Source: Symbiodinium natans
Taxonomy: Eukaryota > Sar > Dinophyceae > Suessiales > Symbiodiniaceae
Direction of reading: 5' to 3'
NCBI GenBank assembly: GCA_905221605.1
Contig: CAJNDS010000032.1
Location: 33,501 to 97,500, forward strand
Length of the DNA: 64,000 nt
Both the position numbers and the translations under genes were made by a program. The number at the start of each line of letters is the position of its first letter. The first letter of the stretch is position 1. Below, piece after piece: positions 1 to 64,000 of the stretch. Below the pieces are notes generated by a model. The model did not search any database. It was not told where the DNA came from and saw only the letters and a program-made list of their open reading frames with translations.

Positions 1-122
1 TGAGACACCTTGTCTTACTTAGCTACCTTTTGCAACCTTCTTGTTTTCTGAGCGAGGTTTTCTTAGTTTGTGAGCTACTTTTTATGATTTTCCGAGTTTT
101 ATGTCATGAACTTTTGCGTTTG

Positions 123-786
123 AGCCACAATCCTAAACCGAAGCTGCAGATTCAGCGTACAGCGCAAACGTGATAATTCTCCGTTTTTCGCCACTGGTGA
201 GGGGCGTTTGAGACAATTTCGTCACGTTTTGAGCTCTGAGCCGCAATCCTAAACCCAATTTGCAGGTTTCCAAAACCTCATAAAAATCGAGCGCGCCGCA
301 TAAATACGGACACACGAGCAAGCATATGGAAAACATGGGCAAAATCGCCATTTCACTTCTTGGAGCCAAGGCTTCTTACATGGAGTTTAAGCCTTTCAGA
401 GACGGCGTTTCACCTTTTGGGGTTTAGGATGCAGCGCGCAGCGCAAACGCGATAATTCTCCGTTCTTCGCAACCAGTGAGGGGCGTTTGAGACAATTTCG
501 TCACGTTTTGAGCTTTGAGCCACAATCCTAAACCCAATTTGCAGGTTTCCAAAACCTCATAAAAATCGAGCGCGCCGCATAAATACGGACACACGAGCAA
601 GCGTATGGAAAACATGGGCAAAATCGCCATTTCACTTCTTGGAGCCAAGGCTTCTTACATGGAGTTTAGGCCTTTCAGAGACGGCGTTTCACCTTAGGAT
701 GCAGCGCGCAGCGCAAACGCGATAATTCTCCGTTCTTCGCAACCAGTGAGGGGCGTTTGAGACAATTTCGTCACGTTTTGAGCTTT
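123..786. repeat. tandem repeat, about 275-bp unit, 2.3 copies
   Basis: The motif GCGCAAACG(T/C)GATAATTCTC recurs at 162, 441 and 711, giving unit lengths of 279 and 270 bp; the third copy breaks off near 786. Each unit also carries CACAATCCTAAACC and an identical CATGGGCAAAATCGCCATTT stretch. Two minus-strand open frames of about 75 codons inside the units are near-identical only because the DNA is repeated; I do not call them genes. Confidence 0.9.
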
Positions 787-1438
787 AATGATTCTATCCT
801 CCCACCACGGTTTTGCAGGACCGCCCTCCCCACATTGCAGTCTGGCGTTCAGCTAGGTCCTGCGTGGTCCTTTCAGCCCCTTTTGCCCCTGGGAAGGTGC
901 TCAGAGAAGGGTCCTGCTGCGTTCCTGGTGGGTTCTGTGGTACGATCAGTACTGCGTGTCACGGGAAGTGTCAGCGTGTTGCTTTGGCTTACTTGTTTGT
1001 TCTGCCGGCTGCCGATCAGTACAGCCGATAGTTTATCAAAGTCCCGCCCGCTCCGGGTGAACTGATGGTGCAGCGGAGCTGCTGCGGAGGAGGAGCTGTT
1101 GCACCCATGTGTGCTTCTCCAATTGGAGTCCTTGAAGCAGCGGCCTGGGGTCGAGTGACGATAGGCAGGCTGGGCCCTGCCCAGCTACTTGCTGCCAAAA
1201 GTGTGTCCGCGTGTGATGGCTGAAGTAGAGCTTATTCAGCGCAGCCCACATGAGCAGCCCCGCCCTCACTGCTCAGAGCCCCCGCTGCCCCAAGAGGCTC
1301 AGGACCGAAGAGCCGCAGCGCAGTCCTAAACCTCACCGCTCTCACCGCCGAACGTTACAAGCAACAATTCCTTTGCACTGCCAACGTGCAACCAGCAAAA
1401 TTAGTAATTCAGGCCTTGCATTTTGCAAGCCTTGAGCC
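787..1438. other. non-coding flank upstream of the Rep-like gene
   Basis: Short overlapping open frames exist on both strands, but none has recognisable protein content. The segment CGATCAGTAC occurs twice (about 943 and 1013). I looked for a geminivirus/circovirus-type origin nonanucleotide (TAGTATTAC or TAATATTAC) on a stem-loop and saw none. An origin could differ in this lineage, so its absence is weak evidence. Confidence 0.4.
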
Positions 1439-2899
1439 ATGGAGCCCAACAAGAGGCGACGGCTGTGTGGCAAGCAAGCTCCGATTGAAGGCCTCAACAC
1501 AAGGGACACCCGAAACGCATTGCAGACTTTCATCCGGGACAGGTGGGTAGCGCAACAAATGACAGCTCGGAATCTGCGTGGACATGAGCAACGGCAGCGG
1601 CTGAGGGTGGAATTCAGCAGCAAACCGGACAAAAGCGCCGTTTTGGAAGGTATGCGAGACCAGGTCCCGCAGAACTTGCGAGCAGCGGCCCGCTCCCTCC
1701 TGGCAAGCTGGACGATAGAAACACCCATCGTCCAGGAACCCGTGTTGTTGTCATATCGTGGATGCGGCACCATGTTTCGCTACAGTGGGTCTTGGTCGAA
1801 GATTGAGGATGCTTCTATCACCTTGCTTTTGACGGACCAGAAGCCATCAATTGATGAGGTCTGCCAATTGCTACGTGCAAATGCAGAGGTCCTGCGTTTG
1901 TGGTCTGACTTTCAGGACTTTGTGAAGGACTTGCAGCGTCGCTTTCACTTGGATCGCGCCACAGCTGCCTTGGAGCTCCACAGCCAAGTGAGTCTTGAGC
2001 GGAAGCAGGCGGCTGTGCACTTGCATCTGATGTGGGACAGCAGAAAAAGTGTGTCCATGGGCAAAGGTGATGTCGTCTTTCGTGGGGCGCCGCCCCACAT
2101 GTCTGTGGACTGTGCGCAGGCTCGCGGGAGATCCTGTCGCAAGGCCTGGGATCAGGGACACTACTATCTGCAATGCCCCAAGATCGGTGCAATTTACATG
2201 ACAACCACGGCCGCGTGCTACACATGCTTTGGGGTGTCGCCCGAATGGGTGACTTCTCTGTGGCAAAGCTGCAAGATCACCAAAGAGACGGCCGAGAAAG
2301 AATATGTGAAGTGCAAAAAACACGTCCGGGCGTACCTGGAGAATGTGAAATTTCACACCCAGTGTGTTCGTGCCGATGCTGTGGCTGAACGACAGGCAGC
2401 TGCCTTGCGTGACTTGCAGCCCTTGATGAGAGACCCCATTCGAGTACAGCAGGTGGAGTCCGATTTTCTGCCACAATTCAGACGGCCAATGTTTCGGCGC
2501 AAGTTTCTTGTCTTGACAGGCCCTACAAGATTGGGAAAGACTATTTATGGCCGTGGCTTGTTTGGGCATGATGCCACTCTGGAGCTCAACTGCTCCGGCG
2601 TCCTTCATCCGGACTTGCGTGAGTACGACCCACTTCGCCACAAAGCAATCCTTTTCGACGAGGCCTGCTGCCAGATGGTTTTGGCCCACAGAAAGCTTTT
2701 CCAGGGCCCTGTCGAGGAAGTCACTTTGGCCCATAGCTCCACGAACATGTACAGCTACTCGGTCTTCGTGTATGGTGTGGCCATGATTACCTCTAACTCC
2801 TGGCGCACAGAGCTGCAAGATTGCAGTCCGGAAGACCAGGAATGGCTTCGTGGAAATTCGATATGCATCGATTGCGATGTGCCTCTGTACAAGCCGTGA
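1439..2899 (+). CDS. Rep-like protein: HUH-type motif plus SF3 helicase
   Basis: Intact intronless 486-residue frame, ATG to TGA. The C-terminal third has the three superfamily-3 helicase motifs in order: Walker A GPTRLGKT (361-368), Walker B AILFDEA (403-409) and a motif C-like MITSNSW ending in the sensor Asn (449-455). Upstream, VHLHLMW (193-199) resembles the metal-binding H-U-H motif II of rolling-circle initiators, and GHYYLQCPK (240-248) lies at the right distance to hold the catalytic Tyr (motif III), though the usual YxxK spacing is not exact. This order (endonuclease, then SF3 helicase) is that of Rep of CRESS-DNA viruses and related algal plasmids. In an episome such a protein nicks the origin and unwinds DNA; here it sits in chromosomal-looking DNA without a capsid gene. 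The absence of stop codons over 1.46 kb suggests recent capture or selection. A domesticated or transposon-borne helicase is the alternative. Confidence 0.72.
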   Translation: MEPNKRRRLCGKQAPIEGLNTRDTRNALQTFIRDRWVAQQMTARNLRGHEQRQRLRVEFSSKPDKSAVLEGMRDQVPQNLRAAARSLLASWTIETPIVQEPVLLSYRGCGTMFRYSGSWSKIEDASITLLLTDQKPSIDEVCQLLRANAEVLRLWSDFQDFVKDLQRRFHLDRATAALELHSQVSLERKQAAVHLHLMWDSRKSVSMGKGDVVFRGAPPHMSVDCAQARGRSCRKAWDQGHYYLQCPKIGAIYMTTTAACYTCFGVSPEWVTSLWQSCKITKETAEKEYVKCKKHVRAYLENVKFHTQCVRADAVAERQAAALRDLQPLMRDPIRVQQVESDFLPQFRRPMFRRKFLVLTGPTRLGKTIYGRGLFGHDATLELNCSGVLHPDLREYDPLRHKAILFDEACCQMVLAHRKLFQGPVEEVTLAHSSTNMYSYSVFVYGVAMITSNSWRTELQDCSPEDQEWLRGNSICIDCDVPLYKP

Positions 2900-3010
2900 G
2901 CGTGCAAAAAGTCGCTTTTGCCCGACCGCAGGACGGGACCCCTGCCCTGAAAGCCTCAAGATCATGTCTTCTGTTTTCAGTTTGGGTGGCCCCGTTCTGC
3001 GACCAAGCGT

Positions 3011-3835
3011 GTTTCGGGTCAGGCTGCCCTCAGAAGCTGCAACTCACACCTTCTGCTTACCTGCAGAAGACTTCCTGAAAGTGTCTGGTCTGTATCGGCG
3101 CAGAAGGAACACCAAAGTGGCCAGTCTGTGTCAGCACTGGAGGAAAGCCCCCAGTAAGGCTGTGCTGCAACCTCAGATTTTTCGTGGGAAGCAAAGACCG
3201 CGGGGAGGCCACGCTGCAACCAAGATTTTTTGGGGGAGGCTGAGAAGCTGCCCCTAAGGCTTCTGCCTATGTGCAGAAGCCTTGCTGAAAGTATCCGGTC
3301 TGTGTCGGCACGGAATGAACACCAAAGTAGCCGGTCGGTGCAAATGAACCTGGCAGGCGTAGTCGGTCTATATCGACCCCTGGATTTTGCCTGAAAGCCG
3401 CAAAAGTACGCGGTTGTGTTTGGTGAGCAAGGAAAAACTCCGAGGAGGGGGCTGGACGCGTGCCCGCGCGCGGGGGACCGCGCTGCCGTTATTCTTTTGG
3501 GTGAGGCTGCAGCCTCAGAATTTTGGGTCTGGTGGGAAGCAGAGATTTCGGCTGCTGTGTTATTCCATGGAGAGTGTTTCACCCGTCACTACGAGCGAAT
3601 CGGCTTGGAGACAGACTCACTGTGCTGCTGATGCGGTAAACGAGCTAGCTTCAAAAAAAAAAAAGGGAAGCAAAGATTCCGGGGAGGCTGTGCTGCAGCC
3701 TCAGAATTGTCGGTCAGGTGGGAAGCAAAGATGCCGAAGAGGGCGTGCTGCAGCCAAGGATTTGTTGTTCTCTGTTTCTGCCTATCCGCAGAAGCTTGAC
3801 TGAAGGAAACCTGTCTGTGTCGGCGCAAAAGGAGT
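3011..3835. repeat. degenerate short repeats downstream of the Rep-like gene
   Basis: Two motifs alternate in diverged form. One is GCTGTGCTGCA(A/G)CCTCAGA followed by a TGGGAAGCAAAGA-type end (near 3161, 3506, 3689, 3743). The other is CTGCAGAAG...CTGAAAG...GGTCTGT(A/G)TCGGC (near 3060, 3280, 3790). The resulting open frames (for example minus 3019-3582) are Ser/Ala-rich and repetitive, so I leave them out. The array starts about 110 bp after the Rep-like stop codon and could be part of the same inserted unit. Confidence 0.6.
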
Positions 3836-4382
3836 CGTGGGAACTGCTAGCTGGAGGCTCAAAAATGTGTACATGTCGGTCTACATTCGGACTTGGGCAA
3901 TCTTGCCAATGCAATCTTGCTCGACTCGAAGGTCCTGAAAGTAGATGCCCGAAACTGGCAGAAAACCCGAGGCCCTATGTGGTGACCTCCACAGTATCTT
4001 GCATGCTGAGCAAAGTACCAGCATCCAAAGGAAGGAACAAGCAAGCATTGCTGTAAAAACCCAGCAACAAAGTCTCACACCAAGAACTCCAGGCTTTTCC
4101 ATGGAAAGCTGTGCTGCCTTTGGCTAACTTTAGCTACGGACTTCAGATTCTTTCTTCTTTGCAGAGTTAACGTTCCAGGTCTTTCTGCTGTGCAGCAAAC
4201 CACAGCCTGCAGTCTAATACAACTGCTTCTCTGCTAAGAGCCTTCTTGCCAGACTTCAGACTACGTGCTAAATGTTAGGACAGCTACAGAAGTAACCTTC
4301 TTTTTTCTCGTCCAAGACAGCTTTTCAAGAAGCTTCCAAACATACTGTTTGTGCAGTGTATCTCTTCCAAGAAACCTTGCAG
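3836..4382. other. no gene recognised
   Basis: Mixed-composition DNA with short open frames on both strands and no protein similarity, tandem repeat or stem-loop that I could support. Confidence 0.4.
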
Positions 4383-5275: not shown

Positions 5276-5606
5276 TAAAGGGCCTCTAAGTGGGCTAAGG
5301 GTAGTAGGGCAAGAGTTTTTGGGCTAAGGGCTGTGAAGGGCAGTTCTAAGGTTCTCTGGGCTAAGGGCAGTGAAGGGCAGTGAAAGGCCTCTAAGGGCCT
5401 CTAAGGGTCTCTGGGCTAAGAGTGAAGGGCAGTAAGGCTTCTAAGGGTCTCTGGGCTGGTTCAAGGTTTCGGTTAAGGGTTTTGGGTTAAGGGTTTTGGA
5501 AGGTTTCGGTTGAGAGTTTTGGGTTAAGGGTTTTGGGTTAAGGGTTTTTGGATTAAGGGTTTTGGGTTTAGCGTTTGGGGTTTAGGGTTTAGGGCTTAGG
5601 GTTGAA
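5276..5606 (+). repeat. degenerate telomere-like (TTTAGGG-related) array
   Basis: Begins with CTAAGGG(C/T)CTCT repeats and becomes GGTTAAGGGTTTTGGGTTAAGG, ending with GGGTTTAGGGTTTAGGGCTTAGGG near 5575-5605. TTTAGGG is the telomere repeat reported for dinoflagellates and plants. The degeneracy and internal position point to an interstitial relic rather than a live telomere. Confidence 0.65.
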
Positions 5607-6281: not shown

Positions 6282-6728
6282 GAAATGGAAATAGAAAATG
6301 AAAGACAAAGAACCTCTTTAATGTTGGATTGTAAATATAATGTCCTCCACAAAGCCATTCTATTAAAGATGGAAATGGAGATAATGGGTTCCCATTAAGA
6401 AGAAGTAAATAATAATTCCAGAAAACCAAGTATTTGGATTATAAAAATATGAAGCATAAGATATAGCTCTTCCAAGATGAAGAAATATAAAAAGAAAGAC
6501 AAATGATACACCATTAGAATGAAGATAACGTAAACACCATCCATAATATATTTCTCTAATTAAAAAGAAAAGAGAAAAATATGCTGAATTAATATCTGAT
6601 GTATAATGTAAACCTAAGAAGATTCCTGTAATAATTTGTAATAAAATAGTAATTCCTAATAAAAAACCAATATTCCAAAAATAATTTATGATCAAAGGAC
6701 AAGGATATGATTGTAAATGAGATTTCAT
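6282..6728 (-). pseudogene. cob: cytochrome b fragment, internally deleted and truncated
   Basis: Cytochrome b is the core membrane subunit of respiratory complex III. The minus strand reads from a probable start, MKSHLQSYP (6728), through LHYTSDINSAYFS, a haem-ligand-region stretch containing YLHSNG, and NTWFSGIIIYFFLMGT (ends at 6387). The frame then shifts: NPLSPFPSLIEWLCGGHYIY, followed by NPTLKRFFVFHFLFPF, continues in another frame from 6390 to the insertion edge at 6282. The roughly 20 residues normally joining these parts (the Qo-site region with the conserved G-x-V-L-P-W-G stretch) are absent, as is everything C-terminal. It cannot encode a working protein. Deletion after transfer to the nucleus and a pre-existing mitochondrial gene chimera are both possible; the latter are common in dinoflagellates. 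Confidence 0.88.
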
Positions 6729-6917
6729 TAGTAATACAAAATATGCTGCATTCACTTTGTTTTGCGTTTCATGCGTACGGACACCAAGAACGGGCGAATG
6801 AGGCTCATGGTGGTTCCTTTCCTAGTGCTTTTAGTTCCTTTTCCAGTATCTTGACACCCTAACCTCTGTCTCTAGGAGTTAATCTGTTGAGTCGTGAAGG
6901 TAACAGCCAGGATGGGA

Positions 6918-28389: not shown

Positions 28390-29244
28390 GCCTGGGGAAG
28401 GACCTGCCGTGAACAACTGGACAGAGACTCGATGTCCCTCTTTCGCTGTTTGCAGAAGCCTCTCCTGACCGAGTTCCGTCGCAGTTTCGCAGAGGACCAT
28501 GCAGACTTCCTTCGACCATTGCTTCCTGTCATTGGTGCCTGGCGAGAGAAGTGCGCGGATTCAGATGGCAAGCTTCTGCTACTACTGCCAGGTGACCTTG
28601 ATGCAGACGTTGCGTACGCAAACATGTGCATGATTGGAACACTTAGGCCGATCCAATCGTACCGAGCCTTCGAAATAGCAATCTCCGGCATTTCGTAGGG
28701 GTGACAGCATCCTATCATTTTTTATCAGCACACCAGCTCGCACTCCCAGGTACTTCGGTGTCTCACGATGCTTCCTTGTGGGAAACGATGGCAGCAGAGT
28801 TCTCTGCTTACCTCGTTAAGAAGGTGCTGAGGATTCGTCCGGAAGATGTTGAAATTTCCCGCCCGGCAGAAGAGCCTCAGATGGGTTCTGGAATATTGAG
28901 GCGTGCTCTTCAAGTGGTACAGGCCTAGATGAGGAAGGCATGAGGATGGGAAACTCACGCGTCAACCTGCCACAGTCTTAGGATGACGATGCGGCGGACG
29001 GCTTGCTCTCCTTGCTGCCGTTCCGATCCTTGATCCGTCGAGAGGAACGGACATGGACAGACTGACAGACTGGGAGTGTTCACTCTCGAGTTGTCCCCTG
29101 TTTCGGATGTTCGGTCTCCCGTTGCAGGCACCGTGCTACAGCGCCATGGCTGTGCTTCGTGGGGATGCCTTTGCTAAGGCATGGCGGCAGCATTTCCGAT
29201 GCAATGTGCAGGCGCGAAAGAAATCGAATGGGATGGTGCTATAG
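28390..29244 (+). CDS. candidate 3' exons of an unidentified gene
   Basis: Four consecutive plus-strand segments look coding: about 28400-28690 (LLTEFRRSFAEDHADFLRPL, GKLLLLLPGDLDADVAYANM), 28750-28928 after CCCAG (SVSHDASLWETMAAEFSAYL, VLRIRPEDVEISRPAEEPQM), about 28980-29060 (DDDAADGLLSLLPFRSLIRR) and a last exon 29128-29244 after GTTGCAG ending in TAG. The product would be a soluble, mainly helical protein. I do not recognise the family. The minus-strand frame over 28047-28718 is Ser/Arg-rich and looks like a shadow. Confidence 0.42.
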
Positions 29245-62880: not shown

Positions 62881-63020
62881 TGGTAGTAGGGTCCCCCCCC
62901 CCCCCCCAAACACACACACGCGCACACACGCGCACACCGCGCACACACGCGCACGCACGCGCACGCACGCGCACACACGCGCACACACGCGCACACACGC
63001 ACACGCGCACACGCGCGCAC

Positions 63021-63065
<45 letters not shown>

Positions 63066-63325
63066 CAGACACACAGACACACACACAGACAGACACACAG
63101 ACAGAGACACACACAGACACAGACACAGACACAGACACAGACACAGACACAGACACAGACACACACACAGACACACACACAGACACACACACAGACACAC
63201 ACAGACACACACAGACACACACACACACAGACAGACACACACACACACACACACAGAGACACACACACACACACACACCACAGACACACACACACACACA
63301 CACACACACAACACACACACACACA

Positions 63326-63356
<31 letters not shown>

Positions 63357-64000
63357 CCACACGGACCCACACGGACCCACACGGACCCACGGACCCACAC
63401 GGACCCACACGGACGGACGGACCCCACGGACACGGACCCACACGGACACACACACGGACCCACACACACGGACCCCACACGGACCCACACGGACCCACAC
63501 GGACCCACACGGACCCACAGGACCCACACGGACCCACACGGACCACACGGACCCACACACACCACACGGACCCACACGGACCCACACGGACCCACACGGA
63601 CCCACACGGACCCACACGGACCCACACGGACCCACACGGACCCACACGGACCCACACGGACCCACACGGACCCACACGGACCCACACGGACCCACACGGA
63701 CCCACACGGACCCACACGGACCCGCACGGACCCACACGGACCCACACGGACACACACGGACCCACACGGACACAACACACACACGGACACAACACACACA
63801 CGGACACAACACACACGGACACAACACACACGGACACAACACACACGGGGACAACACACACGGGGACACCACACACGGGGACACACACACACGGGGACAC
63901 ACACACACACACACACACACACGGGGACACACATACACGGGGACACACACACACACACACAAGGGACACATACGGGGAACCAGGGGACACACACGGGGAC
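62881..64000. repeat. satellite: (CA)n grading into (CACACGGACC)n, to window edge
   Basis: After a 15-base C run (62884-62907 region), sub-arrays succeed one another: ACACACGCGC (62910-63060), CACAGACA (63060-63240), CA (63240-63350), a 10-bp ACACGGACCC unit with dozens of copies (63350-63770), ACACAACACACACGG (63770-63850) and CACACACGGGGACA (63850-64000). The minus strand is open in all three frames for about 380-415 codons because no repeat register contains a stop; these Cys/Val-rich frames are artefacts. Confidence 0.95.

What the first reader, a model, noticed from the sequence alone, without database searches (positions are those of the whole stretch)
1439..2899. Intact CRESS-type Rep-like gene in dinoflagellate nuclear DNA
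A 486-codon uninterrupted frame carries Walker A (GPTRLGKT), Walker B (AILFDEA) and motif C-like MITSNSW of SF3 helicases, with an upstream HLHLMW that resembles HUH motif II. Seen directly: frame and motifs. Established: this two-part order is that of Rep of CRESS-DNA viruses and some algal plasmids. Inference: an endogenised or episome-derived replication gene kept open by recency or selection. Motif III spacing is atypical, so it may be a divergent lineage.
Basis: partly seen in the sequence, partly recalled or inferred. Interest (0 to 1): 0.8.

Follow-up and report, generated by a model that had tools for sequence, protein, structure and literature searches.

The report
Dinoflagellate transposon with two DNA engines
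The gene is a virus-like DNA replication enzyme that sits inside a jumping gene of a coral-symbiont-type alga, next to a second, cut-and-paste enzyme, so the element seems able both to copy itself as circles and to paste itself into chromosomes.

The parts
1..3994 (+). Distal part of the second Rep arc (R, 6,268 bp) of the array C32:20312-37494; the arc begins at C32:31227, 2,274 bases before the window
   Evidence: 98.9-99.1% identity to the matching parts of copy 1, which has 2.6 kb more between them; boundaries and inverted ends
1439..2899 (+). Rep gene, 486 codons, one open frame
1730..2338 (+). HUH endonuclease domain as folded alone (aa 98-300); HLH of motif II at 2018-2026, putative catalytic Tyr243 at 2165-2167, Lys248 at 2180-2182
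   Evidence: model pLDDT 89.9, pTM 0.87; six best VIA matches are CRESS Rep endonuclease domains; positions
2426..2896 (+). SF3-type helicase domain (aa 330-486); Walker A 2519-2542, Walker B 2645-2665, motif C region 2783-2803 with one residue fewer than in relatives
149..786 (+). Direct repeats upstream of Rep, spaced 270-279 bp (two copies of 268 nt plus a third partial one); function unknown
   Evidence: repeats of 279-282 bp spacing also upstream of Rep in copy 1 and C280
3985..3994 (-). Right terminal inverted repeat ACCTCCACAG (inverse of CTGTGGAGGT at C32:20312 and 31227)
3995..3996 (.). TA flanking the right end; the left end of the array (C32:20312) is preceded by TA

Best explanation
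The gene is the replication initiator of a two-enzyme DNA transposon. A DDE transposase (pogo/Tc5-like PF03184 in the window family; Tc1/mariner-like PF13358 in another) recognises short inverted repeats and inserts the element at TA (shown: ends, TA flanks, transposase motifs; inferred: activity). The HUH-SF3 Rep nicks an origin inside the repeated terminal arc and amplifies the unit by rolling circle (inferred from conserved catalytic residues and array structure). The genomic form is (arc-rest)n-arc, with one extra terminal arc in each array read to both ends, so two copies of the same arc flank each unit. Two origins flanking one unit would let Rep release unit circles without excising the chromosomal copy, as geminivirus partial dimers do (recalled). 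Rolling-circle concatemers could then be pasted by the transposase using any left end and any downstream right end, giving n=0 solo arcs and n=1, n=3 and n=4 arrays.
Against: No circle, nick, transcript or movement was observed. No stem-loop origin was found near the window Rep. Each window-family copy read in this assembly carries a change in or near a motif or a break: window copy one residue short before motif C, copy 1 three extra residues in the HUH motif and C280 a substitution of Tyr243, C1882 a stop and frame break. Nine of 52 Rep places lack a listed DDE gene within 10 kb. One of 19 outer boundaries (C1882) is not TA. Several array pieces break off inside units, not at a TIR: C1056 and C2205 have internal breaks, C280 lacks recognisable outer ends. 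Ends of family B (C1223/C1001) and of C653 and C855 were not established. Foldseek E-values for the HUH domain alone are weak (8.2e-3 at best), and the helicase domain's VIA scores are tied with Lon and Clp AAA+ proteins. Head-to-tail arrays can also arise by unequal crossing-over, and the C2105 array is a mosaic of two haplotypes, so homologous recombination is at work.
Confidence: 0.66

Rival explanations
1. Ordinary DDE (pogo and Tc1) transposons that captured Rep genes from ssDNA viruses or plasmids as passengers; transposition is cut-and-paste and arrays grow by unequal crossing-over, with Rep doing nothing for mobility.
For: TA-flanked TIR ends are sufficient for DDE transposition; tandem derivatives without a Rep hit exist (C1165 with a 7.5-kb period; X array at C1369); mosaic haplotypes show recombination.
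Against: Rep and DDE genes of different families are paired again and again; the putative catalytic residues of Rep are conserved in all covered rows but two, P0001 and P0023; arrays read to both ends keep one extra arc at exactly the TIR boundary. Rep-less arrays can equally be amplified in trans.
Confidence: 0.2
2. Endogenous viral element: a CRESS-like DNA virus or plasmid of dinoflagellates integrated into the genome.
For: Rep architecture and fold are those of CRESS Reps; unit sizes of 3.6-6.3 kb are virus- or plasmid-like.
Against: TIR ends with TA and linked transposases; ten further ORFs of the window-family and C2292 units gave no Pfam hit, so no capsid was recognised; no relative confirmed in IMG/VR viral contigs with two Rep alignments.
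Confidence: 0.08
3. Host gene domesticated from a mobile element and kept in tandem arrays, as many dinoflagellate genes are.
For: Open frame, low pN relative to pS, homologues in several Symbiodiniaceae genera; tandem arrays of ordinary genes are common in dinoflagellates (recalled).
Against: Non-coding DNA of units is about 99% identical between copies and ends at TIRs with TA; transposase genes ride along; copies decay differently.
Confidence: 0.05

Closest known systems
Geminivirus-like transposon of Tuber melanosporum (Liu et al. 2011, PMC3198968; passages read)
   Same: Rep-like gene plus transposase ORFs inside a TIR element; 42 Rep genes or remnants in the genome.
   Different: There the reconstructed copy has an interrupted Rep ORF and two broken transposase ORFs, 37-bp TIRs and no obvious TSD, and the word 'tandem' does not occur in the text. 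Here most frames are open, TA flanks are exact, transposases of two Pfam families are paired with Reps, and arrays have terminal redundancy.
CRESS-DNA virus Reps (Genomoviridae, Redondoviridae Vientovirus, geminiviruses, circoviruses)
   Same: HUH endonuclease followed by SF3 helicase; structural matches to both domains.
   Different: Motif III is Y-x4-K instead of YxxK; about 100 extra N-terminal residues; no Pfam hit for the window protein; no capsid recognised; chromosomal TIR/TA boundaries.
pogo/Tc5-like (PF03184) and Tc1/mariner-like (PF13358) DNA transposons
   Same: TA flanks, short TIRs, DDE transposase; HTH domains of Tc5 and Tc3 type, mostly below Pfam cut-off.
   Different: They do not carry a rolling-circle Rep or form (unit)n plus one arc arrays (recalled).
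Helitrons and Replitrons (recalled; one search listed three papers that hold the word replitron, none opened)
   Same: Eukaryotic transposons that use an HUH enzyme; tandem copies occur in Helitrons (recalled).
   Different: No SF3-type CRESS Rep with a DDE partner, and Helitrons have no TIRs or TA duplication (recalled).

Membership tests
CRESS-type Rep (HUH + SF3) | HUH endonuclease fold | tested here: met
CRESS-type Rep (HUH + SF3) | Motif II HxH | tested here: met
   H194 and H196, 21 of 22 rows
CRESS-type Rep (HUH + SF3) | Motif III YxxK | tested here: not met
   Y243-x4-K248; Tyr and Lys conserved but spaced two residues wider
CRESS-type Rep (HUH + SF3) | Motif I UUTUNN | tested here: inconclusive
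   MFRYSG in close relatives, LMTWNG, LLTFNG or TTYN in distant ones
CRESS-type Rep (HUH + SF3) | SF3 Walker A, B and motif C | tested here: met
CRESS-type Rep (HUH + SF3) | Pfam Rep profile above cut-off | tested here: not met
   0 families for the window protein; Gemini_AL1 15.4-18.5 bits against 24 in relatives
CRESS-DNA virus | Capsid gene in the unit | tested here: inconclusive
   No Pfam hit in 10 further ORFs; divergent capsids are not excluded
CRESS-DNA virus | Stem-loop origin | tested here: inconclusive
   No inverted repeat of 12 nt or more within 600 nt in window 1-1450; one pair with a 178-nt gap in 2890-4010; other families not searched for hairpins
Tc1/mariner/pogo-type DNA transposon | TIRs with TA target duplication | tested here: met
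   8 of 8 two-ended sites, 18 of 19 outer boundaries
Tc1/mariner/pogo-type DNA transposon | DDE transposase in the element | tested here: met
   PF03184 and PF13358 above cut-off in arrays; the window's own terminal arc shows none, its array has one between the arcs
Rep-bearing TIR transposon (Tuber type) | Rep and transposase in one TIR element, multicopy | tested here: met
   sequence relatedness to the Tuber element not tested
Rolling-circle replicon | Circular intermediate / nick at origin | not testable with these tools
   needs reads or biochemistry

The most novel reading that the evidence does not exclude
Dinoflagellates host a distinct class of mobile element that splits the work between two enzymes: a CRESS-type Rep copies the unit out of a terminally redundant chromosomal array as rolling circles, and a DDE transposase pastes monomers, multimers or bare terminal arcs into TA. 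The repeated arc is both origin and transposon end, so it also spawns Rep-less satellites (269-bp solo arcs, an 11-copy 326-bp array) driven in trans. One branch has a J-domain Rep (J, HUH, SF3), the domain order of polyomavirus large T (recalled), raising the question of whether such elements stand near the origin of small DNA tumour viruses.
Probability: 0.42. Interest if true: 0.86.

Novelty: new variant of a known kind. Interest (0 to 1): 0.74.

Why it matters
Rolling-circle Reps and DDE transposases are usually seen as separate ways to move DNA. An element with open frames for both, exact ends and more than one independent pairing makes the old idea that ssDNA replicons and DNA transposons trade machinery directly testable. 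It also offers a mechanism for some of the head-to-tail arrays of dinoflagellate genomes, including satellite-like arrays, and it suggests that unnamed Symbiodiniaceae gene models such as those, and at least one named 'Chaperone protein DnaJ' (P0030), are mobile-element proteins.

Tried and rejected
Sequence profiles: Pfam, PHROGs and PDB sequence searches of the window Rep gave nothing convincing; the weak PDB rows (nitrile hydratase, cytochrome c oxidase, E 0.94 and 1.4) and two unnamed PHROGs (E 0.051 and 0.17) were rejected as chance. VIA on the whole model was filled by AAA+ proteins over residues 330-482, so the HUH domain was folded alone. Viral contigs: no relative confirmed with the window-type or J-type Rep alignment. 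The antisense 364-aa ORF of the window has no Pfam hit and is rejected as a shadow of the Rep frame. C1001 was fetched for its ends, but the right side runs into N and no TIR was seen. For C653 the TA/TIR scan only re-found its long inverted repeat. A genome-wide count of PF03184 was never obtained, nor a search with the C855 SF3-like protein (service busy each time). The mosaic pattern of C2105 could not be turned into a choice between recombination and template switching. dN/dS within the window family rests on too few changes to mean much.

Full report
OBSERVATION. The frame 1439-2899 (+) is open for 486 codons; 200 shuffles of the first 6 kb gave at most 232 stop-free codons. Pfam finds no family, PHROGs and the PDB sequences only chance-level rows. 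The protein search finds 23 proteins (only the 7997 candidates sharing most words were scored). Those with organism names come from Durusdinium, Symbiodinium, Cladocopium and Effrenium; the others carry no name. In the alignment of the window protein with 21 of these 23 the putative catalytic residues are nearly invariant: H194 and H196 in 21 of 22, Y243 in 20 of 21, K248 in 21 of 21, K367 in 20 of 21, D407 and E408 in 21 of 21, N453 in 20 of 20 covered rows. The changed rows are P0001 (Tyr) and P0023.

GENOME CONTEXT. The window is C32:33501-97500 of a 759-Mb genome. A protein named Symbiodinium natans (P0004) is identical at 283 of 284 aligned residues to another Rep family of this genome, so the host is probably that species. 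There are 81 matches, in several subfamilies, many at regular spacing (counts of repeats are lower bounds). Self-comparison shows head-to-tail repeats, mostly 98-99.9% identical: about 3.62-kb units (C1056, C1535, C2105, C2205), 6.34-kb units (C2292, C1972), 11.3-kb units (C1223), and the window's own pair. The sequences on both sides of the window's array (7.3 kb left, 20 kb right) have no blastn match to it.

THE SECOND ENZYME. The units also encode DDE transposases. In the window family the gene lies at C32:29294-31209, between copy 1 and the window's copy 2, and again at C280; Pfam DDE_1 scores 31.8 and 32.1 bits against a cut-off of 22. In C2292 it scores 50.4, in C653 43.5, in C855 42.4. 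In C1223 and C1165 it is below cut-off (15.5 and 15.6), with a sub-threshold Tc5-type HTH in the N-terminal ORF (19.9 against 22.2). The 3.62-kb units instead carry a DDE_3 transposase (45.1 against 28.6) with a sub-threshold Tc3-type HTH. C855 has yet another protein with SF3-like motifs and a SAM domain next to its DDE_1 gene. Of 52 Rep places, 43 have one of these genes within 10 kb. Of 28 Rep contigs, 20 do, while 53 of 2543 contigs carry such a gene (hypergeometric about 1e-29, ignoring contig lengths). The counts of places are not independent, because arrays hold many copies. Nine places have none listed nearby; one of them, C1882, has a fragment of the DDE unit upstream, and another, C1524, lies near a contig end.

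ENDS. Window family: CTGTGGAGGT at C32:20312 and 31227, ACCTCCACAG at 29160 and 37494 (= window 3994). The array as a whole reads TTA|CTGTGG ... CCACAG|TATC, while the inner junctions read CCACAG|TTAG and CCTTAA|CTGTGG. C2292 family: TA|CTGAGAAGG ... GACCTCCCCGG|TA at both sites with two ends (C2292, C1972), inner junctions AA and TT; C1524 shows the same left flank as C1972 and is not counted. 3.62-kb family: the C1990 copy sits inside a (TTTAGGC)n repeat as TTTA|CTGCGCC ... GGGGGTG|TAGGC, and C2105 is likewise flanked by TA. Including the solo arcs below, 8 of 8 sites read at both ends have TA on both sides, and 18 of 19 independent outer boundaries do; the exception is C1882. Breaks inside units (C1056, C2205, C280) are not counted as outer boundaries.

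ARCHITECTURE AND A PREDICTION. The arrays read to both ends are (arc-rest)n-arc: 5 Rep arcs and 4 DDE arcs in C2292, 2 and 1 in C1972, 2 and 1 in C32. In the 3.62-kb family the arc is a 269-bp sequence X with inverted ends, identical over 269 bases at the two ends of C1990, four copies in C2105, and the rest carries Rep and transposase. From this I wrote down that solo arcs with TA should exist. The search with X listed 50 full-length copies (248 candidates, 40 scored): 20 on the five Rep-array contigs and 30 on other contigs, including 11 copies at exactly 326-bp spacing on C1369. Of five of those 30 fetched, three are solo X with TA on both sides (C2303, C2446, C1125), and two have the internal-junction flanks, so they seem to lie inside other arrays. 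C1165 is a 7.5-kb-period relative of the C1223 unit that lacks the Rep part.

OTHER SPECIES. The J-domain Rep of the 3.62-kb family has 307 relatives at E up to 1e-3 among the candidates scored (120 listed), including Polarella, Durusdinium, other Symbiodinium species and a Karenia brevis entry of EukProt. Two S. necroappetens gene models join this Rep to the HTH_Tnp_Tc3_2 transposase domain, at 25.8 and 33.5 bits against a cut-off of 31.5, and a Cladocopium model joins a window-type Rep to a stretch similar to the N-terminal ORF of the DDE_1 protein (Tc5-type HTH only E 0.06). So the pairing is not private to this genome.

STATE OF THE WINDOW COPY. All putative catalytic residues are present, but it is one residue shorter just before motif C than the 19 other covering rows. 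Copy 1 has three extra residues at the HUH motif, C280 a changed Tyr243, and C1882 a stop and a frame break. The window family may thus be decaying here, while a relative of 87% identity (P0002) shows none of these changes. Against family B the frame has been under constraint: pS 0.87 and pN 0.25 over 281 codons, synonymous sites saturated.

MECHANISM. Shown: ends, TA flanks, linkage, array order, solo arcs, predicted folds. Inferred: that Rep nicks the arc, that circles form, that the transposase pastes concatemers. The terminal redundancy is what replicational release from a partial tandem dimer would need (recalled from geminivirus work). The passenger-Rep rival with unequal crossing-over explains arrays and solo arcs too, but not the repeated pairing of two Pfam families of DDE enzyme with conserved Reps.

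PRIOR ART. Liu et al. 2011 (PMC3198968, passages read) describe a Tuber melanosporum element with an interrupted Rep, two broken transposase ORFs and 37-bp TIRs; the word dinoflagellate does not occur there. Nor does it in Kazlauskas et al. 2019 (PMC6668415, passages read). Searches showed no paper on dinoflagellate Rep-DDE elements among the titles and abstract starts listed (some lists were cut at 12 to 20 rows; open-licence PMC texts only). Hence 'new variant of a known kind'.

Noticed in passing
window 6366-6755 (-): Fragment of cytochrome b (PF00033, 94.3 bits) in nuclear DNA about 2.4 kb beyond the element end: probably a mitochondrial insertion.
   Followed up: partly
L020:4156-5814, L028:2204-3454 and relatives P0029, P0037, P0115, P0140: Reps with an N-terminal J-domain-like stretch before HUH and SF3 (DnaJ 17.2 and 22.7 bits in the window genome, up to 39.3 in relatives, cut-off 27.8): the domain order of polyomavirus large T (recalled). 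307 relatives, one named 'Chaperone protein DnaJ' (P0030).
   Followed up: partly
G000 C1369:758290-761818: Eleven copies of the 269-bp arc X at exactly 326-bp spacing on a contig absent from the Rep and DDE lists: a satellite-like array apparently derived from the element.
   Followed up: no
G000 C2105:388165-399273: The array is a mosaic of two haplotypes; both ends match the C1990 type, and tracts of the other type span two unit junctions.
   Followed up: partly
L033:2460-5106 (C855): A different HUH-like and SF3-like pair of ORFs (HYHV; GQQGNEGKS; FFDDY) with a SAM domain next to a DDE_1 gene; DDE matches on this contig recur at about 10 kb.
   Followed up: partly
L028 (C653:73667-83000): Two J-domain Rep arms of 3.5 kb in inverted orientation (99.1%) around a DDE_1 gene.
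   Followed up: no
L026:6183-7826: Family B Rep genes are interrupted, probably by an intron, at about codon 203 of the window protein, which reads through there. The annotated S. natans protein P0004 also reads straight across the site.
   Followed up: partly
window 5460-5600: Degenerate telomere-like repeats (TTAGGG/TTTAGGG type) inside the contig; another family's copy (C1990) is inserted in (TTTAGGC)n.
   Followed up: no
window 62900-64000: Long (CA)n and CACACGGACC microsatellite that explains the extreme AT skew of the last kilobase and its long spurious antisense ORFs.
   Followed up: no
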